From: Nymphaea colorata
Taxonomy: Eukaryota > Streptophyta > Magnoliopsida > Nymphaeales > Nymphaeaceae
Direction of reading: 5' to 3'
DNA: 64,000 bases
Assembly: GCF_008831285.2 (NCBI RefSeq)
Contig: NC_045146.1
Coordinates: 15,867,149-15,931,148 of the forward strand
Part shown: piece by piece, positions 8,901 to 36,982 of the stretch
Layout: the number at the start of each line of letters is the position of its first letter
Position numbering within the stretch: position 1 is the stretch's first letter
Program-made: the position numbers and the translations under genes
Notes under the pieces: model-generated
The model's input: the letters and a program-made list of their open reading frames with translations, nothing else
What the model was told of the DNA's origin: nothing
Databases searched by the model: none

Positions 8901-9080
8901 CGCTCTTTCCATTTTTCCTTCGAGCGAGTATTTATGTAATAGGGAAGGGGGAGAAGGGAAGAAGTTTCGTGGGCTTCGTCTTTGCCCACAAATCATCAAT
9001 GCCCTTTCTTCCATTGTGTTCGAGCTTCCTTACAGCGGCAAGGATGTCGAACTGCTGGAGCAATTCTGCAAGATAAGGTA

Positions 9081-9082
<2 letters not shown>

Positions 9083-9126
<44 letters not shown>
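9083..9126. repeat. (TTC)n microsatellite
   Basis: About 14-15 TTC triplets directly after a possible splice donor (AAG|GTAACT at 9,075-9,083). On the + strand the tract would encode polyserine, on the - strand polylysine. Such ORFs are repeat artefacts. Confidence 0.95.
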
Positions 9127-9127
<1 letters not shown>

Positions 9128-9129
9128 TA

Positions 9130-10720: not shown

Positions 10721-11254
10721 AGTCAGTATGACAGAATTTTGTCTATATTTTTTTGATGACGCATATTCAAATTGCCAAAATTCCAATGTTTATAATCAAA
10801 CTCTTACTCAAGTATTATTGTTGTCATTGGTACAAGGTAGAAATGTTAGCCTACAGAAATTGAACAAGCATAATAGGTGAAAAAAGGATCTTTATGTGTA
10901 CCATATACATTTATTCTCGTATAGAAACTTAATTTGGCAATTCTTTTGTCTTTTAATTGTTATGATTTCTGCTTCATAGTTGTGTCTTTGCAGTTTATGG
11001 TTTACATGTGTGTTTGTTTCAGATGTACAGTGCCTTGATGTCATCCAATCCAATGTGTTTCCAGTGGTGGGTTTATATACCACCTGTGTCTAAACCCTTT
11101 TCATTGTCAAAAACATCCATTAACATACAAGAAGAAAGGTGCACTATTGCGTCTCTTCTCTTTAACACACTCAGAATAGTGCTGACTTTAATGTTTCCTA
11201 AACCCAATTTGTTACATAATTTTTTCGCTTCATGTGCTACTTTTTTTTTGAACA
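10721..11254. other. spacer between the AAA-ATPase remnant and the satellite array
   Basis: A possible splice acceptor lies at about 11,013-11,022 (TGTTTCAG), and the next 200 bp are open in one frame, but the translation does not match the AAA-ATPase family or any protein I know. I see no other feature. Confidence 0.4.
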
Positions 11255-11424
11255 CCGGTCTAGTCTTAGAGCTATATTCAAATGCAACTATTTTTAGATC
11301 AGAGATGACCACTGATCTAGACCAACAACATGATTTCAGTCCTACAATTTTCAAATCGGATATGGCCACTAATTCAGACCCACAACCAGAATATTGATGG
11401 AGTAAACGTTAATTTGTTGATATA
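11255..11424. repeat. truncated satellite monomer at the left edge of the array
   Basis: From about 11,280 the sequence aligns to the last sub-repeats of the monomer (AACAACATGATTTCAG, CAATTTTCAAATCG, GGCCACTAATTCAGA). After 11,395 it jumps straight to the segment that normally lies about 265 bp further on. This edge copy therefore has an internal deletion and several private substitutions, unlike the near-identical units to its right. That is the usual pattern for the end of a tandem array. Confidence 0.8.
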
Positions 11425-11925
11425 AGAGAAAAGTGTTGGATCAAGTCAATATCAAGGCAGATGGAGATATACGTGAAGTTGCTGCAATGGTGGTGAATAC
11501 GGTCGAGGTGAAAATGCAAATTTTGTGGTGAAGAAGTCTTTGTCGTTGATGAGATGTCGATGAAGTGAAAAAAAGAATGTTTTAAAAAAAATCCGAAGAC
11601 GTCATCAATTACCATTAGAAAAGCCAAACCTTCAAGATTGGTTGAACAAGCTATTCAAGTCTCATTTGTCGAAAACAAAGAGTACATGTTGCTTCATAGA
11701 TCAAGGTAGAAGACTGAGATTGAGAGAGAAAAGAGATTGAGGTAGATGCCATACAAAATTGGAGAAAACTAGAGATTTAATCGAACAGTTTGCATACATG
11801 CTAGCTAGATTTATTGTATCGGCCAACCAGGATTGGACAAAGGGTTGCATATTCACGGGATATCACAACCTCTCCCTTAGATAAGTTCGAAGACCCACAA
11901 ACGTATCCAAATCCAACAACTTCTT

Positions 11926-12355
11926 TTGATCAGATAAGACCACTGATCCAGATGTACAATTACATATAGTTGAATAATCTACGGATGTCGATCCTGTCCC
12001 TCAACCATATTCAAATTCAATAATCTTTAGATCAGATAAGACCACTGATCTAGATTCTAGACCCACGACATGATTTGAATTCAGCAATTTCTCAAATCAT
12101 ACACGGCCATTGATCTAGACCCACAACTAATTATAAATAAAGCAATTTCTACCTTAGATAAGACTGCTGATCCTGATTTATAATCATACGCAAATTCCTT
12201 TGATCAAATCAGACCACTGGTCCAGCCTTACATGGCCCATATACAAATGCAACGATTTTCAGATCAGAGATTACCACTGATCTATACCCCTGACATGATT
12301 TCAGCCCAACAATTTTCAAATCGTATATGACCACTAATTCATATCCACAACCATA
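11926..12355. repeat. short sub-repeats inside the satellite monomer (example from unit 1)
   Basis: Seven variants of a core like GATAAGACCACTGATC(T/C)AGA occur at about 11,928, 12,029, 12,095, 12,150, 12,199, 12,259 and 12,309. Most are followed by CCCA(C/A)(G/A)ACATGATTT and then CAA(C/T)AATTT. Spacing is irregular, mostly 50-66 bp and once about 100 bp. The same block recurs in every A and B monomer (for example about 13,195-13,640 in B). Thus about a third of each monomer is itself an old tandem repeat, nested inside the 1.25-kb monomer, nested inside the 2.5-kb unit. Confidence 0.85.
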
Positions 12356-15300
12356 ATATACTATTTTCTACAAAATAAGGCGGATCTCATAAACCAAAAT
12401 AAGTGATAGTGTGGAAATCATGATTGTGCACATTTGCTAGGAAAAGATACCGTTGAAGTTTTAGGATGATATAAATAAGTGATTGAAAATGGATTTATTA
12501 AGCATAAATGTTGATATTCAAACAAAGAACATGACATGCCAATGTGTCCCAATGTGTCGTAAACTTCAATATTATTATTCGCTTGTTTGCTTATTATTAG
12601 CATCAGAATATGAAACTTGCAATAGGAGAATGGGCCCCGAGAAGGAGATATGATGAAATGAACATGAATTCGTTTATCTATGAGAAAGGTGTTAGATCAA
12701 AGTTAATATCAAGGCAGATGGAGATATTCCTCAAGTTGCTACAATGGTGGTGAATACGTCGAGGTGAAAATGCAAATTTTGTGGCGAAGAAGTCTTCGTC
12801 GTTGATGAGATGTTAATGAAGTGAAAAAATGAAGGGTTAAAAAAAAAAAAATCCGAAGACGTCATGAATTATCCATCGGAAAAACCTAACCTTCAAAATT
12901 CCTTGAAGAGGCATTTCAAGTCTTATTTGTCGAAAACAAAAGACTACATGTTCTTCCATAGATCAAGGTAGAAGATTGAGATTGAAAGAGAAAAGAGACG
13001 AGGTAGATACCATACAAAATTGGAGAAAACTTGAGATTTGATCGGGCAATTTGCATATCATGTCAGCTAGATTTATTGTGTCGGCCAACCATAATTGGAC
13101 AAAGGGTTGCATGTTTAGGGGATATCACAACCTCCCTCTTAGATAAGTCCGATAACGTAGACCCACAAACATATCCAAATCCAACAACTTCTTTTTTATC
13201 AGATAAGACCACTGATCCAGATGCACAATTACATGTAGTTGAACAATCTACGGATGAAATAAGACCACTGATCTAGATTAAAATCCAATAATCTCTAGAT
13301 CAGATAAGACCACTGATCTAGATTAAAGACCCACGACATGATTTGAATTCAACAATTCCTCAAATCATACACGACCACTGATCTAGACCCACAACTAGTT
13401 CTAAATAAAGCTATTTCTAGCTTCGATAAGACCGTTGTGCCTTATCTACGATCATATGCAAATTCAACAATTCTTGGATCAGATAAGATCACTGGTCCAG
13501 TCTTGCATGACCCATATCCAAATGCAGCGATTTTCATATCACAGATAACCACTGATCTAGACCAACGACATGATTTCGGTCCAACAATTTTCAAATCGTA
13601 TATGGCCACTAATTCAGATCCACAACGAGAATGTACTATTCTCAATAAAATAAGGCGGATCTTATAAACCAAAATCAGTGATAGTGTGGAAAAAATCATG
13701 ATTATGCGCATTTGCTAGGAAAAGAGACCGTTGATGTTCTAGGATGATTTGAATAGTTGATTGCAAATGGATTTGATAAGCATAGATGTTGATATTTATA
13801 CTAAAGACATGATATACCAGTGTGTCGTAAACTTCAATATTATTATTCCCTTGTCTGCTTATTATTAACATCAAAATATGATGAAGGAGATATGATGAAG
13901 TAAACATGAATTTGTTGGTCTAAGAGAAAGGTGTAAATCAAAGTCAATATCAAGGCAGATGGAGATATACGTGAAGTTGCTGCAATGGTGGTGAATACGG
14001 TCGAGGTGAAAATGCAAATTTTGTGGTGAAGAAGTCTTTGTCGTTGATGAGATGTCGATGAAGTGAAAAAAAGAATGTTTTAAAAAAAATCCGAAGACGT
14101 CATCAATTACCATTAGAAAAGCCAAACCTTCAAGATTGGTTGAACAAGCTATTCAAGTCTCATTTGTCGAAAACAAAGAGTACATGTTGCTTCATAGATC
14201 AAGGTAGAAGACTGAGATTGAGAGAGAAAAGAGATTGAGGTAGATGCCATACAAAATTGGAGAAAACTAGAGATTTAATCGAACAGTTTGCATACATGCT
14301 AGCTAGATTTATTGTATCGGCCAACCAGGATTGGACAAAGGGTTGCATATTCACGGGATATCACAACCTCTCCCTTAGATAAGTTCGAAGACCCACAAAC
14401 GTATCCAAATCCAACAACTTCTTTTGATCAGATAAGACCACTGATCCAGATGTACAATTACATATAGTTGAATAATCTACGGATGTCGATCCTGTCCCTC
14501 AACCATATTCAAATTCAATAATCTTTAGATCAGATAAGACCACTGATCTAGATTCTAGACCCACGACATGATTTGAATTCAGCAATTTCTCAAATCATAC
14601 ACGGCCATTGATCTAGACCCACAACTAATTATAAATAAAGCAATTTCTACCTTAGATAAGACTGCTGATCCTGATTTATAATCATACGCAAATTCCTTTG
14701 ATCAAATCAGACCACTGGTCCAGCCTTACATGGCCCATATACAAATGCAACGATTTTCAGATCAGAGATTACCACTGATCTATACCCCTGACATGATTTC
14801 AGCCCAACAATTTTCAAATCGTATATGACCACTAATTCATATCCACAACCATAATATACTATTTTCTACAAAATAAGGCGGATCTCATAAACCAAAATAA
14901 GTGATAGTGTGGAAATCATGATTGTGCACATTTGCTAGGAAAAGATACCGTTGAAGTTTTAGGATGATATAAATAAGTGATTGAAAATGGATTTATTAAG
15001 CATAAATGTTGATATTCAAACAAAGAACATGACATGCCAATGTGTCCCAATGTGTCGTAAACTTCAATATTATTATTCGCTTGTTTGCTTATTATTAGCA
15101 TCAGAATATGAAACTTGCAATAGGAGAATGGGCCCCGAGAAGGAGATATGATGAAATGAACATGAATTCGTTTATCTATGAGAAAGGTGTTAGATCAAAG
15201 TTAATATCAAGGCAGATGGAGATATTCCTCAAGTTGCTACAATGGTGGTGAATACGTCGAGGTGAAAATGCAAATTTTGTGGCGAAGAAGTCTTCGTCGT

Positions 15301-18300
15301 TGATGAGATGTTAATGAAGTGAAAAAATGAAGGGTTAAAAAAAAAAAATCCGAAGACGTCATGAATTATCCATCGGAAAAACCTAACCTTCAAAATTCCT
15401 TGAAGAGGCATTTCAAGTCTTATTTGTCGAAAACAAAAGACTACATGTTCTTCCATAGATCAAGGTAGAAGATTGAGATTGAAAGAGAAAAGAGACGAGG
15501 TAGATACCATACAAAATTGGAGAAAACTTGAGATTTGATCGGGCAATTTGCATATCATGTCAGCTAGATTTATTGTGTCGGCCAACCATAATTGGACAAA
15601 GGGTTGCATGTTTAGGGGATATCACAACCTCCCTCTTAGATAAGTCCGATAACGTAGACCCACAAACATATCCAAATCCAACAACTTCTTTTTTATCAGA
15701 TAAGACCACTGATCCAGATGCACAATTACATGTAGTTGAACAATCTACGGATGAAATAAGACCACTGATCTAGATTAAAATCCAATAATCTCTAGATCAG
15801 ATAAGACCACTGATCTAGATTAAAGACCCACGACATGATTTGAATTCAACAATTCCTCAAATCATACACGACCACTGATCTAGACCCACAACTAGTTCTA
15901 AATAAAGCTATTTCTAGCTTCGATAAGACCGTTGTGCCTTATCTACGATCATATGCAAATTCAACAATTCTTGGATCAGATAAGATCACTGGTCCAGTCT
16001 TGCATGACCCATATCCAAATGCAGCGATTTTCATATCACAGATAACCACTGATCTAGACCAACGACATGATTTCGGTCCAACAATTTTCAAATCGTATAT
16101 GGCCACTAATTCAGATCCACAACGAGAATGTACTATTCTCAATAAAATAAGGCGGATCTTATAAACCAAAATCAGTGATAGTGTGGAAAAAATCATGATT
16201 ATGCGCATTTGCTAGGAAAAGAGACCGTTGATGTTCTAGGATGATTTGAATAGTTGATTGCAAATGGATTTGATAAGCATAGATGTTGATATTTATACTA
16301 AAGACATGATATACCAGTGTGTCGTAAACTTCAATATTATTATTCCCTTGTCTGCTTATTATTAACATCAAAATATGATGAAGGAGATATGATGAAGTAA
16401 ACATGAATTTGTTGGTCTAAGAGAAAGGTGTAAATCAAAGTCAATATCAAGGCAGATGGAGATATACGTGAAGTTGCTGCAATGGTGGTGAATACGGTCG
16501 AGGTGAAAATGCAAATTTTGTGGTGAAGAAGTCTTTGTCGTTGATGAGATGTCGATGAAGTGAAAAAAAGAATGTTTTAAAAAAAATCCGAAGACGTCAT
16601 CAATTACCATTAGAAAAGCCAAACCTTCAAGATTGGTTGAACAAGCTATTCAAGTCTCATTTGTCGAAAACAAAGAGTACATGTTGCTTCATAGATCAAG
16701 GTAGAAGACTGAGATTGAGAGAGAAAAGAGATTGAGGTAGATGCCATACAAAATTGGAGAAAACTAGAGATTTAATCGAACAGTTTGCATACATGCTAGC
16801 TAGATTTATTGTATCGGCCAACCAGGATTGGACAAAGGGTTGCATATTCACGGGATATCACAACCTCTCCCTTAGATAAGTTCGAAGACCCACAAACGTA
16901 TCCAAATCCAACAACTTCTTTTGATCAGATAAGACCACTGATCCAGATGTACAATTACATATAGTTGAATAATCTACGGATGTCGATCCTGTCCCTCAAC
17001 CATATTCAAATTCAATAATCTTTAGATCAGATAAGACCACTGATCTAGATTCTAGACCCACGACATGATTTGAATTCAGCAATTTCTCAAATCATACACG
17101 GCCATTGATCTAGACCCACAACTAATTATAAATAAAGCAATTTCTACCTTAGATAAGACTGCTGATCCTGATTTATAATCATACGCAAATTCCTTTGATC
17201 AAATCAGACCACTGGTCCAGCCTTACATGGCCCATATACAAATGCAACGATTTTCAGATCAGAGATTACCACTGATCTATACCCCTGACATGATTTCAGC
17301 CCAACAATTTTCAAATCGTATATGACCACTAATTCATATCCACAACCATAATATACTATTTTCTACAAAATAAGGCGGATCTCATAAACCAAAATAAGTG
17401 ATAGTGTGGAAATCATGATTGTGCACATTTGCTAGGAAAAGATACCGTTGAAGTTTTAGGATGATATAAATAAGTGATTGAAAATGGATTTATTAAGCAT
17501 AAATGTTGATATTCAAACAAAGAACATGACATGCCAATGTGTCCCAATGTGTCGTAAACTTCAATATTATTATTCGCTTGTTTGCTTATTATTAGCATCA
17601 GAATATGAAACTTGCAATAGGAGAATGGGCCCCGAGAAGGAGATATGATGAAATGAACATGAATTCGTTTATCTATGAGAAAGGTGTTAGATCAAAGTTA
17701 ATATCAAGGCAGATGGAGATATTCCTCAAGTTGCTACAATGGTGGTGAATACGTCGAGGTGAAAATGCAAATTTTGTGGCGAAGAAGTCTTCGTCGTTGA
17801 TGAGATGTTAATGAAGTGAAAAAATGAAGGGTTAAAAAAAAAAAAATCCGAAGACGTCATGAATTATCCATCGGAAAAACCTAACCTTCAAAATTCCTTG
17901 AAGAGGCATTTCAAGTCTTATTTGTCGAAAACAAAAGACTACATGTTCTTCCATAGATCAAGGTAGAAGATTGAGATTGAAAGAGAAAAGAGACGAGGTA
18001 GATACCATACAAAATTGGAGAAAACTTGAGATTTGATCGGGCAATTTGCATATCATGTCAGCTAGATTTATTGTGTCGGCCAACCATAATTGGACAAAGG
18101 GTTGCATGTTTAGGGGATATCACAACCTCCCTCTTAGATAAGTCCGATAACGTAGACCCACAAACATATCCAAATCCAACAACTTCTTTTTTATCAGATA
18201 AGACCACTGATCCAGATGCACAATTACATGTAGTTGAACAATCTACGGATGAAATAAGACCACTGATCTAGATTAAAATCCAATAATCTCTAGATCAGAT

Positions 18301-21300
18301 AAGACCACTGATCTAGATTAAAGACCCACGACATGATTTGAATTCAACAATTCCTCAAATCATACACGACCACTGATCTAGACCCACAACTAGTTCTAAA
18401 TAAAGCTATTTCTAGCTTCGATAAGACCGTTGTGCCTTATCTACGATCATATGCAAATTCAACAATTCTTGGATCAGATAAGATCACTGGTCCAGTCTTG
18501 CATGACCCATATCCAAATGCAGCGATTTTCATATCACAGATAACCACTGATCTAGACCAACGACATGATTTCGGTCCAACAATTTTCAAATCGTATATGG
18601 CCACTAATTCAGATCCACAACGAGAATGTACTATTCTCAATAAAATAAGGCGGATCTTATAAACCAAAATCAGTGATAGTGTGGAAAAAATCATGATTAT
18701 GCGCATTTGCTAGGAAAAGAGACCGTTGATGTTCTAGGATGATTTGAATAGTTGATTGCAAATGGATTTGATAAGCATAGATGTTGATATTTATACTAAA
18801 GACATGATATACCAGTGTGTCGTAAACTTCAATATTATTATTCCCTTGTCTGCTTATTATTAACATCAAAATATGATGAAGGAGATATGATGAAGTAAAC
18901 ATGAATTTGTTGGTCTAAGAGAAAGGTGTAAATCAAAGTCAATATCAAGGCAGATGGAGATATACGTGAAGTTGCTGCAATGGTGGTGAATACGGTCGAG
19001 GTGAAAATGCAAATTTTGTGGTGAAGAAGTCTTTGTCGTTGATGAGATGTCGATGAAGTGAAAAAAAGAATGTTTTAAAAAAAATCCGAAGACGTCATCA
19101 ATTACCATTAGAAAAGCCAAACCTTCAAGATTGGTTGAACAAGCTATTCAAGTCTCATTTGTCGAAAACAAAGAGTACATGTTGCTTCATAGATCAAGGT
19201 AGAAGACTGAGATTGAGAGAGAAAAGAGATTGAGGTAGATGCCATACAAAATTGGAGAAAACTAGAGATTTAATCGAACAGTTTGCATACATGCTAGCTA
19301 GATTTATTGTATCGGCCAACCAGGATTGGACAAAGGGTTGCATATTCACGGGATATCACAACCTCTCCCTTAGATAAGTTCGAAGACCCACAAACGTATC
19401 CAAATCCAACAACTTCTTTTGATCAGATAAGACCACTGATCCAGATGTACAATTACATATAGTTGAATAATCTACGGATGTCGATCCTGTCCCTCAACCA
19501 TATTCAAATTCAATAATCTTTAGATCAGATAAGACCACTGATCTAGATTCTAGACCCACGACATGATTTGAATTCAGCAATTTCTCAAATCATACACGGC
19601 CATTGATCTAGACCCACAACTAATTATAAATAAAGCAATTTCTACCTTAGATAAGACTGCTGATCCTGATTTATAATCATACGCAAATTCCTTTGATCAA
19701 ATCAGACCACTGGTCCAGCCTTACATGGCCCATATACAAATGCAACGATTTTCAGATCAGAGATTACCACTGATCTATACCCCTGACATGATTTCAGCCC
19801 AACAATTTTCAAATCGTATATGACCACTAATTCATATCCACAACCATAATATACTATTTTCTACAAAATAAGGCGGATCTCATAAACCAAAATAAGTGAT
19901 AGTGTGGAAATCATGATTGTGCACATTTGCTAGGAAAAGATACCGTTGAAGTTTTAGGATGATATAAATAAGTGATTGAAAATGGATTTATTAAGCATAA
20001 ATGTTGATATTCAAACAAAGAACATGACATGCCAATGTGTCCCAATGTGTCGTAAACTTCAATATTATTATTCGCTTGTTTGCTTATTATTAGCATCAGA
20101 ATATGAAACTTGCAATAGGAGAATGGGCCCCGAGAAGGAGATATGATGAAATGAACATGAATTCGTTTATCTATGAGAAAGGTGTTAGATCAAAGTTAAT
20201 ATCAAGGCAGATGGAGATATTCCTCAAGTTGCTACAATGGTGGTGAATACGTCGAGGTGAAAATGCAAATTTTGTGGCGAAGAAGTCTTCGTCGTTGATG
20301 AGATGTTAATGAAGTGAAAAAATGAAGGGTTAAAAAAAAAAAAATCCGAAGACGTCATGAATTATCCATCGGAAAAACCTAACCTTCAAAATTCCTTGAA
20401 GAGGCATTTCAAGTCTTATTTGTCGAAAACAAAAGACTACATGTTCTTCCATAGATCAAGGTAGAAGATTGAGATTGAAAGAGAAAAGAGACGAGGTAGA
20501 TACCATACAAAATTGGAGAAAACTTGAGATTTGATCGGGCAATTTGCATATCATGTCAGCTAGATTTATTGTGTCGGCCAACCATAATTGGACAAAGGGT
20601 TGCATGTTTAGGGGATATCACAACCTCCCTCTTAGATAAGTCCGATAACGTAGACCCACAAACATATCCAAATCCAACAACTTCTTTTTTATCAGATAAG
20701 ACCACTGATCCAGATGCACAATTACATGTAGTTGAACAATCTACGGATGAAATAAGACCACTGATCTAGATTAAAATCCAATAATCTCTAGATCAGATAA
20801 GACCACTGATCTAGATTAAAGACCCACGACATGATTTGAATTCAACAATTCCTCAAATCATACACGACCACTGATCTAGACCCACAACTAGTTCTAAATA
20901 AAGCTATTTCTAGCTTCGATAAGACCGTTGTGCCTTATCTACGATCATATGCAAATTCAACAATTCTTGGATCAGATAAGATCACTGGTCCAGTCTTGCA
21001 TGACCCATATCCAAATGCAGCGATTTTCATATCACAGATAACCACTGATCTAGACCAACGACATGATTTCGGTCCAACAATTTTCAAATCGTATATGGCC
21101 ACTAATTCAGATCCACAACGAGAATGTACTATTCTCAATAAAATAAGGCGGATCTTATAAACCAAAATCAGTGATAGTGTGGAAAAAATCATGATTATGC
21201 GCATTTGCTAGGAAAAGAGACCGTTGATGTTCTAGGATGATTTGAATAGTTGATTGCAAATGGATTTGATAAGCATAGATGTTGATATTTATACTAAAGA

Positions 21301-24300
21301 CATGATATACCAGTGTGTCGTAAACTTCAATATTATTATTCCCTTGTCTGCTTATTATTAACATCAAAATATGATGAAGGAGATATGATGAAGTAAACAT
21401 GAATTTGTTGGTCTAAGAGAAAGGTGTAAATCAAAGTCAATATCAAGGCAGATGGAGATATACGTGAAGTTGCTGCAATGGTGGTGAATACGGTCGAGGT
21501 GAAAATGCAAATTTTGTGGTGAAGAAGTCTTTGTCGTTGATGAGATGTCGATGAAGTGAAAAAAAGAATGTTTTAAAAAAAATCCGAAGACGTCATCAAT
21601 TACCATTAGAAAAGCCAAACCTTCAAGATTGGTTGAACAAGCTATTCAAGTCTCATTTGTCGAAAACAAAGAGTACATGTTGCTTCATAGATCAAGGTAG
21701 AAGACTGAGATTGAGAGAGAAAAGAGATTGAGGTAGATGCCATACAAAATTGGAGAAAACTAGAGATTTAATCGAACAGTTTGCATACATGCTAGCTAGA
21801 TTTATTGTATCGGCCAACCAGGATTGGACAAAGGGTTGCATATTCACGGGATATCACAACCTCTCCCTTAGATAAGTTCGAAGACCCACAAACGTATCCA
21901 AATCCAACAACTTCTTTTGATCAGATAAGACCACTGATCCAGATGTACAATTACATATAGTTGAATAATCTACGGATGTCGATCCTGTCCCTCAACCATA
22001 TTCAAATTCAATAATCTTTAGATCAGATAAGACCACTGATCTAGATTCTAGACCCACGACATGATTTGAATTCAGCAATTTCTCAAATCATACACGGCCA
22101 TTGATCTAGACCCACAACTAATTATAAATAAAGCAATTTCTACCTTAGATAAGACTGCTGATCCTGATTTATAATCATACGCAAATTCCTTTGATCAAAT
22201 CAGACCACTGGTCCAGCCTTACATGGCCCATATACAAATGCAACGATTTTCAGATCAGAGATTACCACTGATCTATACCCCTGACATGATTTCAGCCCAA
22301 CAATTTTCAAATCGTATATGACCACTAATTCATATCCACAACCATAATATACTATTTTCTACAAAATAAGGCGGATCTCATAAACCAAAATAAGTGATAG
22401 TGTGGAAATCATGATTGTGCACATTTGCTAGGAAAAGATACCGTTGAAGTTTTAGGATGATATAAATAAGTGATTGAAAATGGATTTATTAAGCATAAAT
22501 GTTGATATTCAAACAAAGAACATGACATGCCAATGTGTCCCAATGTGTCGTAAACTTCAATATTATTATTCGCTTGTTTGCTTATTATTAGCATCAGAAT
22601 ATGAAACTTGCAATAGGAGAATGGGCCCCGAGAAGGAGATATGATGAAATGAACATGAATTCGTTTATCTATGAGAAAGGTGTTAGATCAAAGTTAATAT
22701 CAAGGCAGATGGAGATATTCCTCAAGTTGCTACAATGGTGGTGAATACGTCGAGGTGAAAATGCAAATTTTGTGGCGAAGAAGTCTTCGTCGTTGATGAG
22801 ATGTTAATGAAGTGAAAAAATGAAGGGTTAAAAAAAAAAAAATCCGAAGACGTCATGAATTATCCATCGGAAAAACCTAACCTTCAAAATTCCTTGAAGA
22901 GGCATTTCAAGTCTTATTTGTCGAAAACAAAAGACTACATGTTCTTCCATAGATCAAGGTAGAAGATTGAGATTGAAAGAGAAAAGAGACGAGGTAGATA
23001 CCATACAAAATTGGAGAAAACTTGAGATTTGATCGGGCAATTTGCATATCATGTCAGCTAGATTTATTGTGTCGGCCAACCATAATTGGACAAAGGGTTG
23101 CATGTTTAGGGGATATCACAACCTCCCTCTTAGATAAGTCCGATAACGTAGACCCACAAACATATCCAAATCCAACAACTTCTTTTTTATCAGATAAGAC
23201 CACTGATCCAGATGCACAATTACATGTAGTTGAACAATCTACGGATGAAATAAGACCACTGATCTAGATTAAAATCCAATAATCTCTAGATCAGATAAGA
23301 CCACTGATCTAGATTAAAGACCCACGACATGATTTGAATTCAACAATTCCTCAAATCATACACGACCACTGATCTAGACCCACAACTAGTTCTAAATAAA
23401 GCTATTTCTAGCTTCGATAAGACCGTTGTGCCTTATCTACGATCATATGCAAATTCAACAATTCTTGGATCAGATAAGATCACTGGTCCAGTCTTGCATG
23501 ACCCATATCCAAATGCAGCGATTTTCATATCACAGATAACCACTGATCTAGACCAACGACATGATTTCGGTCCAACAATTTTCAAATCGTATATGGCCAC
23601 TAATTCAGATCCACAACGAGAATGTACTATTCTCAATAAAATAAGGCGGATCTTATAAACCAAAATCAGTGATAGTGTGGAAAAAATCATGATTATGCGC
23701 ATTTGCTAGGAAAAGAGACCGTTGATGTTCTAGGATGATTTGAATAGTTGATTGCAAATGGATTTGATAAGCATAGATGTTGATATTTATACTAAAGACA
23801 TGATATACCAGTGTGTCGTAAACTTCAATATTATTATTCCCTTGTCTGCTTATTATTAACATCAAAATATGATGAAGGAGATATGATGAAGTAAACATGA
23901 ATTTGTTGGTCTAAGAGAAAGGTGTAAATCAAAGTCAATATCAAGGCAGATGGAGATATACGTGAAGTTGCTGCAATGGTGGTGAATACGGTCGAGGTGA
24001 AAATGCAAATTTTGTGGTGAAGAAGTCTTTGTCGTTGATGAGATGTCGATGAAGTGAAAAAAAGAATGTTTTAAAAAAAATCCGAAGACGTCATCAATTA
24101 CCATTAGAAAAGCCAAACCTTCAAGATTGGTTGAACAAGCTATTCAAGTCTCATTTGTCGAAAACAAAGAGTACATGTTGCTTCATAGATCAAGGTAGAA
24201 GACTGAGATTGAGAGAGAAAAGAGATTGAGGTAGATGCCATACAAAATTGGAGAAAACTAGAGATTTAATCGAACAGTTTGCATACATGCTAGCTAGATT

Positions 24301-27300
24301 TATTGTATCGGCCAACCAGGATTGGACAAAGGGTTGCATATTCACGGGATATCACAACCTCTCCCTTAGATAAGTTCGAAGACCCACAAACGTATCCAAA
24401 TCCAACAACTTCTTTTGATCAGATAAGACCACTGATCCAGATGTACAATTACATATAGTTGAATAATCTACGGATGTCGATCCTGTCCCTCAACCATATT
24501 CAAATTCAATAATCTTTAGATCAGATAAGACCACTGATCTAGATTCTAGACCCACGACATGATTTGAATTCAGCAATTTCTCAAATCATACACGGCCATT
24601 GATCTAGACCCACAACTAATTATAAATAAAGCAATTTCTACCTTAGATAAGACTGCTGATCCTGATTTATAATCATACGCAAATTCCTTTGATCAAATCA
24701 GACCACTGGTCCAGCCTTACATGGCCCATATACAAATGCAACGATTTTCAGATCAGAGATTACCACTGATCTATACCCCTGACATGATTTCAGCCCAACA
24801 ATTTTCAAATCGTATATGACCACTAATTCATATCCACAACCATAATATACTATTTTCTACAAAATAAGGCGGATCTCATAAACCAAAATAAGTGATAGTG
24901 TGGAAATCATGATTGTGCACATTTGCTAGGAAAAGATACCGTTGAAGTTTTAGGATGATATAAATAAGTGATTGAAAATGGATTTATTAAGCATAAATGT
25001 TGATATTCAAACAAAGAACATGACATGCCAATGTGTCGTATGCCAATGTGTCGTAAACTTCAATATTATTATTCGCTTGTTTGCTTATTATTAGCATCAG
25101 AATATGAAACTTGCAATAGGAGAATGGGCCTCGAGAAGGAGATATGATGAAATGAACATGAATTCGTTTATCTATGAGAAAGGTGTTAGATCAAAGTTAA
25201 TATCAAGGCAGATGGAGATATTCCTCAAGTTGCTACAATGGTGGTGAATACGTCGAGGTGAAAATGCAAATTTTGTGGCGAAGAAGTCTTCGTCGTTGAT
25301 GAGATGTTAATGAAGTGAAAAAATGAAGGGTTAAAAAAAAAAAAATCCGAAGACGTCATGAATTATAAATCGGAAAAACCTAACCTTCAAAATTCCTTGA
25401 AGAGGCATTTCAAGTCTTATTTGTCGAAAACAAAAGACTACATGTTCTTCCATAGATCAAGGTAGAAGATTGAGATTGAAAGAGAAAAGAGACGAGGTAG
25501 ATACCATACAAAATTGGAGAAAACTTGAGATTTGATCGGGCAATTTGCATATCATGTCAGCTAGATTTATTGTGTCGGCCAACCATAATTGGACAAAGGG
25601 TTGCATGTTTAGGGGATATCACAACCTCCCTCTTAGATAAGTCCGATAACGTAGACCCACAAACATATCCAAATCCAACAACTTCTTTTTTATCAGATAA
25701 GACCACTGATCCAGATGCACAATTACATGTAGTTGAACAATCTACGGATGAAATAAGACCACTGATCTAGATTAAAATCCAATAATCTCTAGATCAGATA
25801 AGACCACTGATCTAGATTAAAGACCCACGACATGATTTGAATTCAACAATTCCTCAAATCATACACGACCACTGATCTAGACCCACAACTAGTTCTAAAT
25901 AAAGCTATTTCTAGCTTCGATAAGACCGTTGTGCCTTATCTACGATCATATGCAAATTCAACAATTCTTGGATCAGATAAGATCACTGGTCCAGTCTTGC
26001 ATGACCCATATCCAAATGCAGCGATTTTCATATCACAGATAACCACTGATCTAGACCAACGACATGATTTCGGTCCAACAATTTTCAAATCGTATATGGC
26101 CACTAATTCAGATCCACAACGAGAATATACTATTCTCAATAAAATAAGGCGGATCTTATAAACCAAAATCAATGATAGTGTGGAAAAAATCATGATTATG
26201 CGCATTTGCTAGGAAAAGAGACCGTTGATGTTCTAGGATGATTTGAATAGTTGATTGCAAATGGATTTGATAAGCATAGATGTTGATATTTATACTAAAG
26301 ACATGATATACCAGTGTGTCGTAAACTTCAATATTATTATTCCCTTGTCTGCTTATTATTAACATCAAAATATGATGAAGGAGATATGATGAAGTAAACA
26401 TGAATTTGTTGGTCTAAGAGAAAGGTGTAAATCAAAGTCAATATCAAGGCAGATGGAGATATACGTGAAGTTGCTGCAATGGTGGTGAATACGGTCGAGG
26501 TGAAAATGCAAATTTTGTGGTGAAGAAGTCTTTGTCGTTGATGAGATGTCGATGAAGTGAAAAAAAGAATGTTTTAAAAAAAATCCGAAGACGTCATCAA
26601 TTACCATTAGAAAAGCCAAACCTTCAAGATTGGTTGAACAAGCTATTCAAGTCTCATTTGTCGAAAACAAAGAGTACATGTTGCTTCATAGATCAAGGTA
26701 GAAGACTGAGATTGAGAGAGAAAAGAGATTGAGGTAGATGCCATACAAAATTGGAGAAAACTAGAGATTTAATCGAACAGTTTGCATACATGCTAGCTAG
26801 ATTTATTGTATCGGCCAACCAGGATTGGACAAAGGGTTGCATATTCACGGGATATCACAACCTCTTCCTTAGATAAGTTCGAAGACCCACAAACGTATCC
26901 AAATCCAACAACTTCTTTTGATCAGATAAGACCACTGATCCAGATGTACAATTACATATAGTTGAATAATCTACGGATGTTGATCCTGTCCCTCAACCAT
27001 ATTCAAATTCAATAATCTTTAGATCAGATAAGACCACTGATCTAGATTCTAGACCCACGACATGATTTGAATTCAGCAATTTCTCAAATCATACACGGCC
27101 ATTGATCTAGACCCACAACTAATTATAAATAAAGCAATTTCTACCTTAGATAAGACTGCTGATCCTGATTTATAATCATACGCAAATTCCTTTGATCAAA
27201 TCAGACCACTGGTCCAGCCTTACATGGCCCATATACAAATGCAACGATTTTCAGATCAGAGATTACCACTGATCTATACCCCTGACATGATTTCAGCCCA

Positions 27301-28219
27301 ACAATTTTCAAATCGTATATGACCACTAATTCAAATCCACAACCATAATATACTATTTTCTACAAAATAAGGCGGATCTCATAAACCAAAATAAGTGATA
27401 GTGTGGAAATCATGATTGTGCACATTTGCTAGGAAAAGATACCGTTGAAGTTTTAGGATGATATAAATAAGTGATTGAAAATGGATTTATTAAGCATAAA
27501 TGTTGATATTCAAACAAAGAACATGACATGCCAATGTGTCGTATGCCAATGTGTCGTAAACTTCAATATTATTATTCGCTTGTTTGCTTATTATTAGCAT
27601 CAGAATATGAAACTTGCAATAGGAGAATGGGCCCCGAGAAGGAGATATGATGAAATGAACATGAATTCGTTTATCTATGAGAAAGGTGTTAGATCAAAGT
27701 CAATATCAAGGCAGATGGAGATATTCCTCAAGTTGCTACAATGGTGGTGAATACGTCGAGGTGAAAATGCAAATTTTGTGGCGAAGAAGTCTTCGTCGTT
27801 GATGAGATGTTAATGAAGTGAAAAAATGAAGGGTTAAAAAAAAAAAATCCGAAGACGTCATGAATTATCCATCGGAAAAACCTAACCTTCAAAATTCCTT
27901 GAAGAGGCATTTCAAGTCTTATTTGTCGAAAACAAAAGACTACATGTTCTTCCATAGATCAAGGTAGAAGATTGAGATTGAAAGAGAAAAGAGACGAGGT
28001 AGATACCATACAAAATTGGAGAAAACTTGAGATTTGATCGGGCAGTTTGCATATCATGTCAGCTAGATTTATTGTGTCGGCCAACCATAATTGGACAAAG
28101 GGTTGCATGTTTAGGGGATATCACACCCTCCCTCTTAGATAAGTCCGATAGCGTAGACCCACAAACATATCCAAATCCAACAACTTCTTTTTTATCAGAT
28201 AAGACCACTGATCCAGATG

Positions 28220-28227
28220 CACAATTA
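28220..28227. repeat. left 8-bp target-site duplication (CACAATTA)
   Basis: CACAATTA lies directly left of the transposon and again directly right of it at 29,198-29,205. The other B monomers carry it once, at the same place, followed by CATGTAGTTG. This proves the insertion. Confidence 0.93.
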
Positions 28228-28426
28228 CAATGTTATCCGTATCGTACGATACGGACGCGTATCGTACGATACGTATCGTCCGTATCAACGTTTTCGATAC
28301 GTTACACCTATTAAATACGATACGCGTCCGTATCGTACGCGTATCGTACGTATCGTGCGATACGGTGGGCGTATCGCACGATACGTGCGATACACCCCCG
28401 TATCGCACGATACGGGAGTAAAATTT

Positions 28427-28452
28427 AAAAAGGGGCCGTCGGGCCCCTTTTT
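28427..28452. repeat. perfect 11-bp inverted repeat (hairpin) inside the hAT element
   Basis: The arms are AAAAAGGGGCC (28,427-28,437) and its exact reverse complement (28,442-28,452), with the 4-nt loop GTCG. It lies just inside the left subterminal repeat block. It may be structural only; no function is known to me. Confidence 0.85.
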
Positions 28453-28648
28453 GCTTCTTATTCTCAAACCGACGCTCCTCTCTCTCTCGTTGTGGGGAGT
28501 CTTGGGACGGTGGGAAGCTTGGAGAAAGAGGGTTTTTTGGTTTTTAACACCAAGAAGGTAAAAAATAACTCATTTTTGCCGTTGAATCGTTCATTTCTCT
28601 TATTTCCTACATTTATTTGTATGTTTTTACTTGTTTTGTGAAGATATA

Positions 28649-28768
28649 ATGTCGGATCCTGCATGGCAGTGGTGTACAAGGGTGAATCCCAAAGATAGAT
28701 TAAGAGTTAAGTGCAATTATTGTAAGCAAATCATATCAGGAGGGATTTCTCGATTTAAACACCATTGA
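28649..28768 (+). pseudogene. truncated hAT transposase, BED zinc-finger fragment
   Basis: A 39-codon frame starts ATGTCGGATCC and contains CNYC, then ISRFKHH at the end: the Cys-x2-Cys ... His pattern of the BED finger found at the N-terminus of plant hAT transposases. The WQW motif before it (residues 6-8) also fits that family. Translation stops straight after the His pair, where intact relatives continue for several hundred residues. A possible intron (donor AAG|GTAAAA at 28,556-28,562, acceptor TGTGAAG at about 28,642) precedes the ATG, as is common in this family. This is the remnant of an internally deleted transposase gene. Confidence 0.8.
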
Positions 28769-29197
28769 CGATGCTTTTTGTTTTGAGTTTTGAAAACTAT
28801 GTCAATATGTTCTGAGTTTTGACTTCTGAACTTATGAATTGTGATGTAATTGAATACTCTTAGGTTGTTTAGTATGTTATTTTGTTTTTTGAATGTTTGA
28901 TTTCTTATTTTGGAATGTCTTGTTCATATGCATAGCTCACAGGTCATACTTCATATAGATGAATGATGAACGTTCCTTTAAATACATTTTTCTTGAATTT
29001 TTCTGATTTTTACTAGTTTTTTCGGATTTTTTTAGAATTTTTCGGATTTTTTTTTCTATTTTTTATAAATTTTTAATATTTTTTACAAATTAAAAAATTA
29101 ATTTTACGGTACGTTACGATACATTTACGATACGTTACGATACGGCGTATAGGTCGGCCCGACCGATACACGATATGATACGGCAGTGATAACATTG

Positions 29198-29205
29198 CAC
29201 AATTA
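29198..29205. repeat. right 8-bp target-site duplication (CACAATTA)
   Basis: Exact copy of 28,220-28,227, immediately after the right terminal inverted repeat. The satellite sequence then resumes with CATGTAGTTGAACAATC. Confidence 0.93.
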
Positions 29206-32200
29206 CATGTAGTTGAACAATCTACGGATGTCGATCCTGTCCCTCATCCATATTCAAATCCAATAATCTTTAGATTAGATAAGACCATTTATCTAGATTC
29301 TAGACCCACGACGTGATTTGAATTCAACAATTTCTCAAATCACACACGGCCGTTGATCTAGACTCACAACTAGTTCTAAATAAAGCAATTTCTAGCTTAG
29401 ATAGGGCCGTTGATCCAGATCTACAATCTTACGCAAATTTAACAATTCTTGGAACAAATAAGACAACTGGTCCAGTCTTACATGGCCCATATCCAAATGC
29501 AATGATTTTCATATCAGAGATGACTACTGATCTAGACCAACAACTTGATTTCAGTCCAACAATTTTCAAATCATATATGACCACTAATTCAAATCCACAA
29601 CGGGAATATACTATTCTCAATAAACTAAGGTGGATCTCATAAACCAAAATCAGTGACAGTGTGGAAGTCATGATTATGCACATTTGCTAGGAAAAGAGAC
29701 CGTTGAGGTTTTAGGATAATTTGAATAAATGATTGCAAATGGATTTGATAAGCATAGATGTTGATATTCATACTAAGGACATGATATACCACTGTGTCGT
29801 AAACTTCAATATTATTATTATTATTTTGTCTGATTATTATTAGTATCAGAATATGAAACTTGCAATAGGAGAATAGGCTCGATGAAGGAGATATGATGAA
29901 GTGAACATGAATTTGTTGGTCTAAAAGAAAGGTCTAGATCAAAGTCAATATCAAGACAGATGGTGATATACGTGAAGTTGCTGCAATGGTGGTGAATATA
30001 GTCGAGTTTAAAATGCAAATTTTGTGGTGAAGAAGTCTTTGTTGTTGATGAGATGTCGATGAAGTGAAAAAATGAAGGTTTAGAAAAAAAATCTAAAGAC
30101 GTCATCAATTCTCCATCCGAAAAACCAAACCTTCAATGTTGGTTGAAGAAGCTATTCAAGTCTCATTTGTCGAAAACAAAGGAGTACATGCTCCTCCATA
30201 AATCAACGTAGAAGATTGAGATTGAGATAAAAAAGCGATTGACGTATCACGTATATGCCATACAAAATTGGAGAAAACTAGAGATTAGATCGGGCAGTTT
30301 GCATATCATGCCAACTAGATTTATTGCATCGGCCAACCATGATTGGAGAAAGGGTTGCATGCTCAGGGGATATCACAACCTTTCTCTTAGATATGTCCGA
30401 TAGCGTAGACCCACAAACATATCCAAATCCAACAACTTTCTTTTATCAAATAAGACCACTGATCGAAATGCACAATTACATGTAGTTGAACAATATACGG
30501 ACGAGATAAGACCATTGATCCTGTCCCTCAACCATATTCAAATCCAATAATCTCTAGATCAGATAAGACCACTTATCTGGATTCTAGACCCACGACATGA
30601 TTTGAATTCAACAATTTCTCCAATCATACATGGCCACTAATCTAGACCCACAACTAGTTATAAATAAAGCAATTTCTAGCTTAGATAAGACCGCTGATCC
30701 TTATCTACAATCATATGTAATTTCAACAATTCTTGGTTCAAATAAGACCACTGGTCCATATCCAAATGCAACGATTTTCAAATCAGAGATGACCATTGAT
30801 CTACACCAACAACATGATTTTAGTCCAACAATTTTCAAATCGTATATGGCCACTAATTCAGATCTACAACGAGAATATACTGTTCTCAACAAAATAAGGC
30901 GGATTTCATAAACCAAAATAAGTGACAGTGTGGAAATCATGATTATGTACATTTGCTAGGAAAAGAGGCCGTTGAGGTTCTAGGATGATTTGAATAAGTG
31001 GTTGCAAATGGATTTGATAAGCGTGGATGTTGATATTCATGCTAAGGACATGATATACCAGTGTGTCGTAAACTTCAACATTATTATTCCTTTGCCTGAT
31101 TATTATTAGCGTCAGAATATGAAACTTGCAATAGGAGAATAAGCTTGATGAAGGAGATATGATGAAGCGAACATAAATCTGTTGGTGTAAGATAAAGGTG
31201 TAGATCAAAGTCAATATCAAGGCTGATGGAGATATACGTGAAGTTGCTGCAATGATGGTGAATACAGTCGAGGTGAAAATGCAAAATTTGTGGTGAAGAA
31301 GTCTTTGTCGTTGATGAGATGTCGATGATGTGAAAAATTGAAGGTTTAAAAAAAAAATTGGAAGACGTCATCAATTATCCATCAGAACAATCAAACCTTC
31401 AAGATTGATTGAAGAAGCTATTCAAGTCTCATTTGTCGAAAACAAAGGAGTACATGATCCTCCCTAGATCAAGGTAGAAGATTGAGATTGAGAGAGAAAA
31501 GAGATCGAGGTAAATGACTTATGAAATTGGAGAAATCTAGAGATTTGATCGAGCAGTTTGCATATCATGCCAGCTAGATTTATTGCATCGGCCAACCTTG
31601 ATTGGACAAAAGGTTCCATATTCAGGGGATATCACAACATCTCCCTTAGATAAGTCCAATTGCGTAGACCCACAATCATATCCAAATCCAGCAACTTTTT
31701 TTTATCAGATAAGACCACTGATCCAGATGCACAATTAGATCAGGTAAGTTTACTGATCTAGATTCTAGACCCACGACATGATTTGAATTCAACAATTTCT
31801 TAAATCATACACGACCACTGCTCTAGACCCACAACTAGTGCTAAATAAAGTAATTTCTAGCTTAGATAAGGCTGTTGATCCTGATCTACAATCATACACA
31901 AATTCAATAATTCTTGGATCATATAAGACCACTGGTCCAGTCTTACATGATTTTCACCAACGACATGATTTCAGTCTAACAATTTTCAAATCTGGCCACT
32001 AATTCGGATCTACAACCAGAATATACTATTCTCAATAAAATAAGGCAAGTCTTATAAACCAAAATCAATGACAGTGTGGAAATCATGATTATGCACATTT
32101 GCTCGGAAAAGATACCGTTGAGGTTCTAGAATGATTTGAATAAGTGATTGAAAATGGATTTATTAAGCATAGATGTTGATATTCAAACTAAGAACTTGAT

Positions 32201-32716
32201 ATGTCAATGTGTCGCAAACTTCAATATTATGATTCCTTTGTCTGCTTATTATTAGCATCAGAATATGAAACTTGCAATAGGAGAATAGGTCCCGAGAAGG
32301 AGATATGATGAAGTGAATATGAATTTGTTCATCTATGAGAAAGGTGTCAGATCAAAGTTAATATCAAGCAGATGGAGATATACCTGAAGTTGCTACAATG
32401 GGGCTGAATACAGTCGAGGTGAAAATGCAAATTGTGTGGTGAAGAAGTCTTTGTCGTTGATGAGATGTTGATGAAGTGAAAAAATGAAGGGTTAAAAATA
32501 ATTCCGAAGACGTCATGAATTATCCATCGGAAAAACCTAACCTTCAAAATTCCTTGAAGAAGCTTTTCGAGTCTTATTTGTCGAAAACAAAAGAGTATAT
32601 GCTGCTCCATAGATCAAGGTAGAAGATTGAGATTGATAGAGAAAAGAGATTGAGGTAGGTACCATACAAAGTTGGAGAAAACTAGAGATTTGTTCGAGCA
32701 GTTTGCATATCATGCC
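29206..32716. repeat. diverged satellite monomers at the right edge of the array
   Basis: After the transposon the array continues with the rest of one monomer and then monomers starting near 29,925, 31,189 and 32,337. Spacings are 1,264 and 1,148 bp, the shorter one caused by deletions, and the last monomer breaks off at about 32,716. They share all landmarks with the core units (GATAAGACCACTGATC core, AACTTCAATATTATTATT, TTGTCGAAAACAAA), but substitutions and small indels occur every 10-20 bp. They do not fall cleanly into the A or B type. I infer older monomers outside the zone of recent homogenisation. Confidence 0.9.
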
Positions 32717-33188
32717 AAGAGTGCACTGAATGAAACTCAAAAAATTAGATCCGTTGTCCACGTCTCAGGGAAGTCAAGTTTAAGAGCGTGAAATGTTCAA
32801 CACTGAAGAGGTGGCTTGTTTTCAAATTTTTAATTTCTACCACATATTTCAAAAATTAAATTTTATTTTGAAATGATCAATTTCATATAATAATAAGTTT
32901 TTACCTGCTTCTATAATATATGTCTTTAATGTTCACCATGATTTTCACAAAATAAGCCGGACCCCTTGGTTTCTAGTATGAGCATTGTGTTCTCTTACTT
33001 TTCTGTTTTTTCTTGAGAAGCAACAGTAATGGAATGGAAACCGAAAATTGAGATGAAGGCAATGCCCACTGCTATTGAAGAGGGTCAACACTTTTGTGGT
33101 TGCACTTCTTTGTGTCCTTTCTTTCTTGATGTGCAACTTAGACCACCAAATATTTTGAATATATCATACTTTATCGGCTTTAGTGATT

Positions 33189-33206
33189 AATATATATATA
33201 TATATA
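33189..33206. repeat. (TA)n microsatellite
   Basis: Nine TA dinucleotides in intergenic DNA. Confidence 0.85.
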
Positions 33207-35220
33207 GTTTTTATCTCCTAGCTAGGTTCTTGCTTGGAAACTTATGAGTAATTTTAGTGGATAAAAAACAATAAAGGAAAAAAGATAAATATGAATACTG
33301 TTTTCTTTTACTGGTGATTTTATGTTCAGTTTTCTACTTTCTTGTAGATTTTTAATTATTACACCCATCCTTTAATTTGAAACTTGCAATTGGAAATGAT
33401 GCCTCGGATATGGAGATCCTTCAATGGGTTTCCAGCCAAATTTCCTCCATACCCATATATCTGAAAGGACATCTCCACTTGGTCTGTTACTGGCTGCTTC
33501 AGGGAATTATGAGCACAAAAGCTTAGGAAATGCATTTATAAACAAGCATAACTTTTAACTTTTGTGCTTGTTGAAATTCCTTGATGCTTTATACACTAGT
33601 CTAGATGTTGACTTGCAACCATAACACCAGACCTCCTCGGCATCATATTTGCACTAAAATTTATTTTGTCAGATTAGATACATGCAAAAGTATATTCTGG
33701 AGCCTGCGTGCCAATACATGTATTAGTTGCATTCAAGCTTATACATGTGAAGCACCTTGGTCAAAATTTTCCATTTCCAGACCCCTGTTACAGGTCTGCT
33801 TAGGTACCCAGCACTTCACATTTTTTTTCTGTTTTGAACGCCTTTTGTTTCTTGTGGGCACAATAAAGTGGAGTAGAATTGCCGTTAGTTCAGGGTTCTT
33901 ATATAACTTGTACCAAGTATTGTTCCTCACAGCCCTGTCAACCTATGTTGTCTATGCTATCTTATCTCTGCAGCCCATATCTTAGATATTGTAGACATTG
34001 TTTTATTTCATTAGGCAATTGGAATGGCGAATTGATGCTGTCAAAAAAGTGGAATGAAGAATGAGAAGAAATCGTCAATTTGAAACTTTTTTTTCCTTCT
34101 AGTTTGCACTTTTTGCGGTTTTGGTGTTAGGTATAAAACCAACAGACAATGAAATCAAAGCAGATAACTGGAGATCCCAAGTGCTTTAATTCTGGCTGCC
34201 CAACGCAAATTTAGGTAGTATAAAGTTCTAAACTATATTAGTTGATGAAAGGGCTTCTTGTGCAAACAATTTGACTTCATTTGTATGTCATAAATGCATA
34301 GGCTTAAAAATATAACTCAATTTGGATATTTGGTATAGATATAATAAACCAAGTATACAGATTAAGATGCATACATGTTATAGATGAAAAGATAAAACTA
34401 ATTCGGTTTAACTTCTTATACCGTGTATTTATTTCAAATTTTTGGACATTGGACTTTTACTTTTGGATTTTTAGTTTTATATGATATTAACATGGACGTA
34501 GAATTTGGCAACCATTTGGTAGTTGTAAATGTTGAATGTGTTGATCTTAGTGCTTGATCTTTATTGACTTGTTTTTCTTTGATATATTGATTCATTTCAC
34601 ACAGTTTTCTTTGAAAAATGCAATTATAGATCTTGTTATCAATTTCTTGTTATCCAAACATATGATATAACTTAGTTATTACTTGAAGGTATGAATTATA
34701 CATGGATTTAAGTCATTGTACAATTTTTTATATTTAAATGACAAGCTATATATTGTTTTTCTTTAAAACAATAGGTAACGAAAACTGACCTGAGTCAACA
34801 AGTTAACCCGCTGAGTTATGAGGCTAGAACAAACGAGTCGAGACCCGAGTAACGGGGTTTTAAAACATTGCTTAATATCAAATCCAACTCACAACAATTC
34901 CATAGTGAAACCGAATTAACAATGGCAGACTGCAAGCATAGGTTTAATGAAACCAAACTAAAGTAGCATGGCTCCTGGGGCTTGGACGGTAAACCTGCTG
35001 AGGATTAGGGCCCCTTACCTTTTATTAGAGAATACGGCTTTTGGGGCTTGGCAGATCTGCAGTTGCAGAGAATTGAAAACTCAACGTAGGGAGCTTGAGC
35101 TAGCTTACCTTGGTCTTTCGTATTGTATAAGCTTATAATAGAATCCTTGACATTTTGTTAGAACTTTAAGCGTGGTTTTTTTTTTATAATACAGCTTTAT
35201 TTCTAGAAATGGCTTCTTTT

Positions 35221-36470: not shown

Positions 36471-36515
36471 GTATATATATATATATATATATATTTATTT
36501 ATTTATTTATTTATT
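36471..36515. repeat. (TA)n then (TATT)n microsatellite
   Basis: About 12 TA units run directly into about five TATT units. Confidence 0.9.

Positions 36516-36977: not shown

Positions 36978-36982
<5 letters not shown>

What the first reader, a model, noticed from the sequence alone, without database searches (positions are those of the whole stretch)
11255..32716. Three-level nested satellite: short sub-repeat, 1.25-kb monomer, 2.5-kb dimer unit
Seven head-to-tail 2.5-kb units, each an A plus B pair of diverged monomers, with each monomer partly built of sub-repeats about 50-66 bp apart. This is the organisation of higher-order repeats known from centromeric alpha satellite, but with a much longer monomer and in a gene-bearing region. 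I do not recognise the family.
Basis: seen in the sequence. Interest (0 to 1): 0.75.

Follow-up and report, generated by a model that had tools for sequence, protein, structure and literature searches.

The report
Nested plant satellite with two-monomer unit
A plant chromosome carries a local block of repeated DNA built at three nested levels, and related blocks sit at matching positions on several other chromosomes, where each has evolved on its own; it is an ordinary kind of satellite DNA in an unusually clear setting.

Summary
Six complete 2,498-bp A+B units and a seventh, interrupted one run from 11391 to 28229. A ~970-bp DNA transposon follows, then diverged monomers to 32717. A and B differ by 12%; units 2-5 are identical except for one base in an A-run. 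Sub-repeats about 57 bp apart fill part of each monomer (138 profile hits in the array, none in the flanks). It is a young dimeric higher-order repeat.

In the same genome the sub-repeat core has sites on at least ten large contigs. The 1.25-kb monomer forms arrays at C11:18.31, C6:8.35 and C5:1.0 Mb, between the same flanking sequences as here. At C13 left and right segments lie 260 bp apart without the array. Monomers form one clade per locus, so each array was homogenised separately.

Best explanation: a non-coding satellite locus, older than the duplication of its segment, reshaped by unequal exchange, with a very recent dimer burst here. Genome-wide against segmental duplication is open. 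No function is shown. New member of a known kind.

The parts
6560..11246 (+). Left flank, present as a collinear paralogous segment at C11, C6 and C5, in part at C10 and C13
11250..11394 (+). Truncated, diverged first monomer fragment; its junction with the flank and its monomer phase (model position 849) are shared with the C11 array
11391..28229 (+). Homogenised dimer (A+B) block: U1-U6 complete, U7 interrupted
13890..15143 (+). Example monomer A (in U2)
15146..16386 (+). Example monomer B (in U2)
14426..14875 (+). Sub-repeat domain of monomer A in U2; sub-repeats start with the 21-bp core GATCAGATAAGACCACTGATC or a variant
15694..16150 (+). Sub-repeat domain of monomer B in U2
28229..29196 (+). 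Non-autonomous DNA transposon inserted in the array; short inverted ends (AATGTTATC/GATAACATT), 10-bp target-site duplication GCACAATTAC (28219-28228 and 29197-29206), remnant BED zinc finger
   Evidence: sequence; Pfam PF02892 E=2.1e-7
29197..29888 (+). Monomer C (right part, cut by the transposon)
29891..31154 (+). Monomer D
31157..32300 (+). Monomer E (internal deletion), sister to A in the tree
32303..32717 (+). Truncated last monomer (F)
32718..36978 (+). Right flank; paralogous copies at C11 and C6 (sequence read) and at C5, C13, C8 (from search tables)

Best explanation
This is a non-coding plant satellite locus with three levels of tandem organisation. An old ~57-bp sub-repeat, shared by satellites on many chromosomes, was joined to ~0.8 kb of other sequence and amplified as a ~1.25-kb monomer. 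That monomer array already lay at this position before the surrounding segment was duplicated to several chromosomes. After duplication each copy was homogenised on its own. In the window, two neighbouring monomers about 12% different (A and B) were copied together as a 2,498-bp unit, so recently that four units differ by one base in an A-run. The edges escaped: the left fragment and monomers C-F are 9-15% diverged from the core. Shown: the structure, the divergence gradient, the shared position and flanks, one clade per locus. Inferred: that the process is unequal crossing-over or gene conversion between repeats, that duplication was of chromosome segments rather than by a mobile element, and that the array has no sequence-specific function.
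For: Period and unit identity. Monomer tree of 27 rows (20 different): W 16 rows, C11 4, C6 7, each on one side of a branch with 100% ultrafast bootstrap; a second tree of 19 rows with 3 C5 monomers gives the same for all four loci. Unrooted, monomers and flanks agree: W and C11 against C6 and C5. W and C11 share the left junction at the base level, monomer phase included. Array between the two flanks at C11, C6 and C5. Sequence further left (window 6.4-8.9 kb) also lies, in order, at C11, C6 and C5, and at C13, where it is 260 bp from the right flank. Recent homogenisation recurs elsewhere: C11 m2/m3 99.8% identical, three C5 monomers on end branches of 0.0063 or less. Between-locus identity is flat along the monomer, 0.71-0.83 per 60-bp bin, as for sequence without a protected block.
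Against: Monomers differ between loci about twice as much as the flanks (0.183 against 0.089-0.101 for W-C11; 0.251 against 0.124-0.135 for W-C6), so either the ancestral array was already heterogeneous or the array evolves faster; both are assumptions. In C6 and C5 the exact left junction differs from W/C11, and C6 and C5 have a ~2-kb segment between array and right flank that W lacks, so only the place, not every junction, is shared. The right-flank copies match W only up to W's own array end, which by itself does not show a shared right junction. Two left-flank copies show no sub-repeat in the 1.5 kb fetched beyond the match (C10, C5:26.69 Mb). The C9:11.49 Mb relative shows no flank match to the window in the 30 kb fetched. 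Identical neighbouring units could in part be an assembly artefact.
Confidence: 0.76

Rival explanations
1. The array is part of a large mobile element, and flanks plus array were dispersed by transposition rather than by duplication of chromosome segments.
For: The left flank gives 20 matches at the window and about 12 other places, the right flank 18 matches at the window and 8 other places, with different extents. The trehalose-phosphatase region has only 67-78% paralogs, none beside the flank copies, whereas the flanks are 86-91% identical without an exon pattern. W-C6 similarity stopped at 9270 and 35574 within the first stretch fetched.
Against: Order continues past the flanks to window 6.4 kb in C11, C6 and C5 and to ~37 kb in C11. 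Outer limits differ from copy to copy. No direct or inverted repeat bracketing the array in the window self-comparison at E 1e-10. No transposase or reverse transcriptase domain in the 10 window ORFs given to Pfam (many more, shorter frames were not tested). Low copy number.
Confidence: 0.16
2. The satellite grew from tandem repeats inside an LTR retrotransposon, as described for Lathyrus (PMC7004042), and the retrotransposon parts are lost.
For: Known route for plant satellites (passages of PMC7004042). Copia-type ORFs, recognised by eye and not run against a library, lie near the C6 and C11 arrays.
Against: No LTR-like direct repeats around the array in the window. The Copia-type ORFs lie in stretches of C6 and C11 that are insertions between collinear parts and absent from the window. 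The non-sub-repeat part of the monomer has no identified source.
Confidence: 0.07
3. The identical units are an assembly artefact; the real array has fewer or more units.
For: Four units identical but for one A-run base. Read data not available. Relatives of the sub-repeat also sit in small contigs (C50, C657), as incompletely assembled repeats do.
Against: Units carry private differences in order (U6 and U7 share a 5-bp insertion, U1 has its own edge). The window has no N. High similarity between neighbours recurs in independent arrays.
Confidence: 0.1

Closest known systems
Alpha-satellite higher-order repeats (human; recalled)
   Same: Unit made of several diverged monomers, units nearly identical, diverged monomers at the edges
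   Different: Monomer 1.25 kb instead of 171 bp, with sub-repeats inside; dimer only; arrays of ~5-21 kb; no evidence of a centromere role
Long-monomer plant satellites (Vicia faba, Solanum; PMC5895790, passages read)
   Same: Monomers of about 1 kb or more; most of the Vicia ones gave a single FISH signal
   Different: In Vicia faba the long monomers showed no internal sub-repeats except VfSat8 (irregular); here sub-repeats are clear and shared with other satellites of the genome
Retrotransposon-derived satellites of Lathyrus sativus (PMC7004042, passages read)
   Same: Tandem sub-repeats expanded into arrays
   Different: No LTR retrotransposon found around the array here
Dispersed short satellite arrays near genes (review PMC10048060, passages read)
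   Same: Array in a gene-bearing region, related to larger arrays elsewhere
   Different: Here the array's place is shared by paralogous chromosome segments and each copy is homogenised separately

Membership tests
Satellite DNA | Head-to-tail non-coding tandem array | tested here: met
   stop-to-stop frames inside the array reach at most 153 aa and mostly recur with the unit
Satellite DNA | Concerted evolution (copies within a locus more alike than between loci) | tested here: met
Higher-order repeat | Diverged monomers inside a unit, near-identical units | tested here: met
   A-B 88.0% identity, U2-U5 identical but for one base
Alpha satellite | ~171-bp monomer | tested here: not met
   monomer ~1.25 kb, sub-repeat ~57 bp
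Centromeric satellite | Binds the centromeric histone / lies in the functional centromere | not testable with these tools
   no ChIP or cytogenetic data
LTR-retrotransposon-derived satellite | Array bracketed by LTR-like direct repeats | tested here: not met
   window self-comparison, E 1e-10
LTR-retrotransposon-derived satellite | Sub-repeat or monomer found inside an LTR element elsewhere in the genome | not tested
   -
rDNA spacer-derived satellite | Linkage with rRNA genes | tested here: not met
   Rfam gathering-threshold scan of the window: 0 families; homology to spacer sequence itself not tested
Helitron | 5' TC, 3' hairpin and CTRR end, RepHel | not tested
   -
Named plant repeat family | Match in a plant repeat library | not testable with these tools
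   no plant repeat library held; two 15-mers of the core are in no paper text of the library

The most novel reading that the evidence does not exclude
The ~57-bp sub-repeat, with its 21-bp core of two 6-bp inverted arms around a 9-bp spacer (GATCAG-ATAAGACCA-CTGATC), is a protein-binding or fork-stalling site. It would keep these arrays in place on paralogous segments and drive their repeated re-amplification, much as the CENP-B box is proposed to act in alpha satellite (recalled).
Probability: 0.06. Interest if true: 0.7.

Novelty: new member of a known kind. Interest (0 to 1): 0.4.

Why it matters
Paralogous copies of one satellite locus, with flanks that can be compared base by base, are natural replicates for concerted evolution: same start, same neighbourhood, different outcome (dimer units of 2,498 bp at C9; single monomers of ~1.13 kb at C11 and ~1.3 kb at C5 and C6). 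They let one measure how fast arrays homogenise, compared with the divergence of their own flanks. The window also shows a homogenised block ending close to a transposon insertion, a testable case of an insertion at, or limiting, the edge of exchange.

Tried and rejected
Mobile-element origin of flanks plus array: looked likely after (many flank copies with different extents), then weakened when one search showed sequence further out in the same order and the array-less C13 site. I cannot tell whole-genome from segmental duplication: the trehalose-phosphatase region has only diverged paralogs, none beside the flank copies (8 of 8 candidates scored), which fits loss of gene copies after polyploidy as well as a smaller duplication.

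Conserved functional block in the monomer: between-locus identity is flat along the monomer, so none was found. The 21-bp core is more conserved than the rest of the sub-repeat as a mean over six groups of loci (1.41 against 0.98 bits per column), but it was chosen by eye and served as the start of the profile. Over 363 different sub-repeats arm pairing clearly exceeds the expectation from column composition only at the pair 6-16 (0.71 against 0.58). Weak.

Protein-coding flank: joined exon-like stretches of the left flank gave no Pfam family, and conservation over six copies shows no exon pattern. No tRNA or Rfam family in the window. Organism not identified. Literature searches listed no paper that I recognised as this locus or family; only listings were seen, except passages of three papers.
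Full report
Observation. Self-comparison shows direct repeats in one orientation from 11250 to 32717. The best autocorrelation lag of 11391-28233 is 2,498 bp, with weaker peaks at 1,223-1,275 bp. Cut in register, there are six complete units (U1 11391-13889 to U6 23881-26383) and a seventh that is interrupted. U2, U3, U4 and U5 are identical except for one base in an A-run of U2. U1 equals them apart from its first 52 columns. U6 has five substitutions and a 5-bp insertion; U7 has seven substitutions, the same insertion and the missing A. A and B monomers are 88.0% identical over aligned positions. Monomers C, D and E are 86.5-89.5% identical to A, B and each other, and E is sister to A (support 100/98). 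The truncated last monomer is 86-91% identical to the others in the window.

The break at 28229-29196 is a DNA transposon of ~970 bp. The sequence shows GCACAATTAC on both sides, ends AATGTTATC and GATAACATT, and inside it a 39-residue frame that matches the BED zinc finger (PF02892, E=2.1e-7). The homogenised block ends close to it: beyond the target-site copy only 24 more bases agree with monomer B before the sequence switches. An insertion that limits exchange is one reading; coincidence is another.

Sub-repeats. A profile seeded with 26 sub-repeats of this array and rebuilt once from hits in the window and the fetched loci finds 138 copies in the array, none in the flanks and one in 20 dinucleotide shuffles of the array. 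Among neighbours less than 75 bp apart the median spacing is 56-58 bp in each of the 15 stretches examined, window included. The consensus is nearly the same in six groups of loci. The core GATCAGATAAGACCACTGATC with up to one mismatch occurs 614+570 times in the 408-Mb genome; the reversed control occurs 0 times (the list, cut at 100, reached only C1-C3). A 30-base pattern with up to two mismatches gave 108 sites, control 0; the 100 listed are on C1, C2, C4, C5, C8, C9, C10, C11, C12 and two small contigs. With C3 that is ten large contigs. Clusters are seen on C1, C2, C5, C9 (this window), C10, C11 and C12; on C3, C4 and C8 the lists show only one or two separate sites.

Relatives. The A monomer finds arrays at C11:18.309-18.314 Mb and C6:8.348-8.366 Mb and fragments at C9:11.48-11.49 Mb; C11:8.09-8.17 Mb, C12, C50, C657 and two single places (C9:24.90, C11:12.04 Mb) match only in the sub-repeat part (28 of 100 first-look candidates were scored, so the list is a lower bound and missed the C5 array). 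C5:0.995-1.014 Mb carries the family at ~1,290-bp spacing. The C11:8.08 Mb array has its own dimeric order: 708-bp monomers ~94% alike and 1,416-bp repeats ~99-100% alike, so dimer formation is not unique to the window.

Same position. The window's left flank (8936-11246) and right flank (to 36978) are collinear with the flanks of the C11 array, and 9270-11253 plus 32720-35574 with those of the C6 array. At C5 left and right flank lie on either side of the array. W and C11 share the left junction base by base, including the phase of the monomer (model position 849 in both). In C6 (~260 bp) and C5 (~15 bp) other sequence lies between left flank and array. C6 and C5 share a further ~2-kb segment between array and right flank (81%), which carries a 2.15-kb repeat insertion in C6 and is absent in the window. 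Right-flank copies at C6, C5, C13 and C8 match the window only from 32715-32723 on, that is, up to the window's own array end; this says that none of them has the array in phase at that join, not that the junction is shared. Further left, window 6.4-8.9 kb lies in the same order at C11, C6 and C5. At C13 this segment (window 6565-7681) lies 260 bp from the right flank (window 32715), so there the array and 3.5 kb beside it are missing; those bases could not be read. Left-flank copies at C10 and C5:26.69 Mb show no sub-repeats in the 1.5 kb fetched beyond them.

History. Flank differences are 0.089 (left) and 0.101 (right) for W-C11, 0.135 and 0.124 for W-C6, 0.132 and 0.125 for C11-C6. The flank tree of six copies splits {C9, C11, C10} from {C6, C5:1.0, C5:26.7} with 100/100 support and unresolved order inside. 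Monomers form one clade per locus at 100% bootstrap and, unrooted, show the same split, W and C11 against C6 and C5. Monomer differences between loci are about twice those of the flanks; an already mixed ancestral array or a faster rate would explain it. With no substitution among U2-U5 over 4 x 2,497 bases, the 95% upper bound is 3e-4 per unit branch under a star tree. With a recalled plant rate near 7e-9 per site per year that is at most some tens of thousands of years, a rough figure.

Mechanism. Identical core, diverged edges, unit-size steps and one clade per locus are what unequal crossing-over and gene conversion predict (established theory, recalled). No step of that process was observed. 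Nothing in the array points to a product: no long ORF, no RNA family at gathering thresholds, and conservation is flat along the monomer between loci. I therefore take it as a passive satellite.

Duplication. Duplication of chromosome segments fits the common order over about 30 kb, array included, at C9, C11, C6 and C5, and the shorter match at C13. Against a recent whole-genome event stands that the trehalose-6-phosphate phosphatase region at 49.6-51.6 kb has only 67-78% paralogs, none beside the flank copies, and that no match to window 37-64 kb was found in the stretches fetched at C11 and C6; gene loss would explain that too. This is open.

Known kinds. Higher-order repeats are well known; in Vicia faba long-monomer satellites mostly lack sub-repeats (PMC5895790, passages); in Lathyrus short arrays inside retrotransposons gave rise to satellites (PMC7004042, passages); satellite arrays near genes are reviewed in PMC10048060 (passages). 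The present case combines several of these features and adds paralogous positions. Whether the family already has a name could not be tested.

Noticed in passing
window 28229-29196; related ends at L025 8100-8152 and 9677-9940: Non-autonomous DNA transposon with 10-bp target-site duplication and a BED zinc-finger remnant; related ends recur at C9:24.9 Mb.
   Followed up: partly
window 6878-7070: About 190-bp high-copy repeat: most matches listed for the query window 6400-8930 fall on this stretch (1170 first-look candidates, 40 scored), often as pairs ~270 bp apart on many contigs.
   Followed up: no
window ~50.2-50.7 kb, + strand: Exons of a trehalose-6-phosphate phosphatase-like gene, weak single-exon matches.
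   Followed up: partly
window 1000-1868 and 7421-8652: Diverged direct duplication (66-79%) of short stretches within the left part of the window.
   Followed up: no
window 40324-42243 and L037 2734-3680 (C10:22.22 Mb): A window segment ~30 kb to the right lies, inverted, directly next to the left flank at C10; suggests rearrangement of the same ancestral segment. A PPR-like ORF (recognised by eye) is at L037 2-925.
   Followed up: no
L020-L022, L027, L028, L023 (C11:8.08-8.17 Mb, C50): A separate, larger array with 708/1416/901/2315-bp periods built from the same 57-bp sub-repeat, with its own dimeric order.
   Followed up: partly
C2:15.807-15.831 Mb: Dense cluster of the exact 21-bp core with spacings such as ~435, ~358, 78 and 39 bp, not fetched.
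   Followed up: no
L016 5291-10000 (C9:11.495-11.500 Mb): A 230/460/690-bp tandem array next to a fragment of the 1.25-kb monomer.
   Followed up: no
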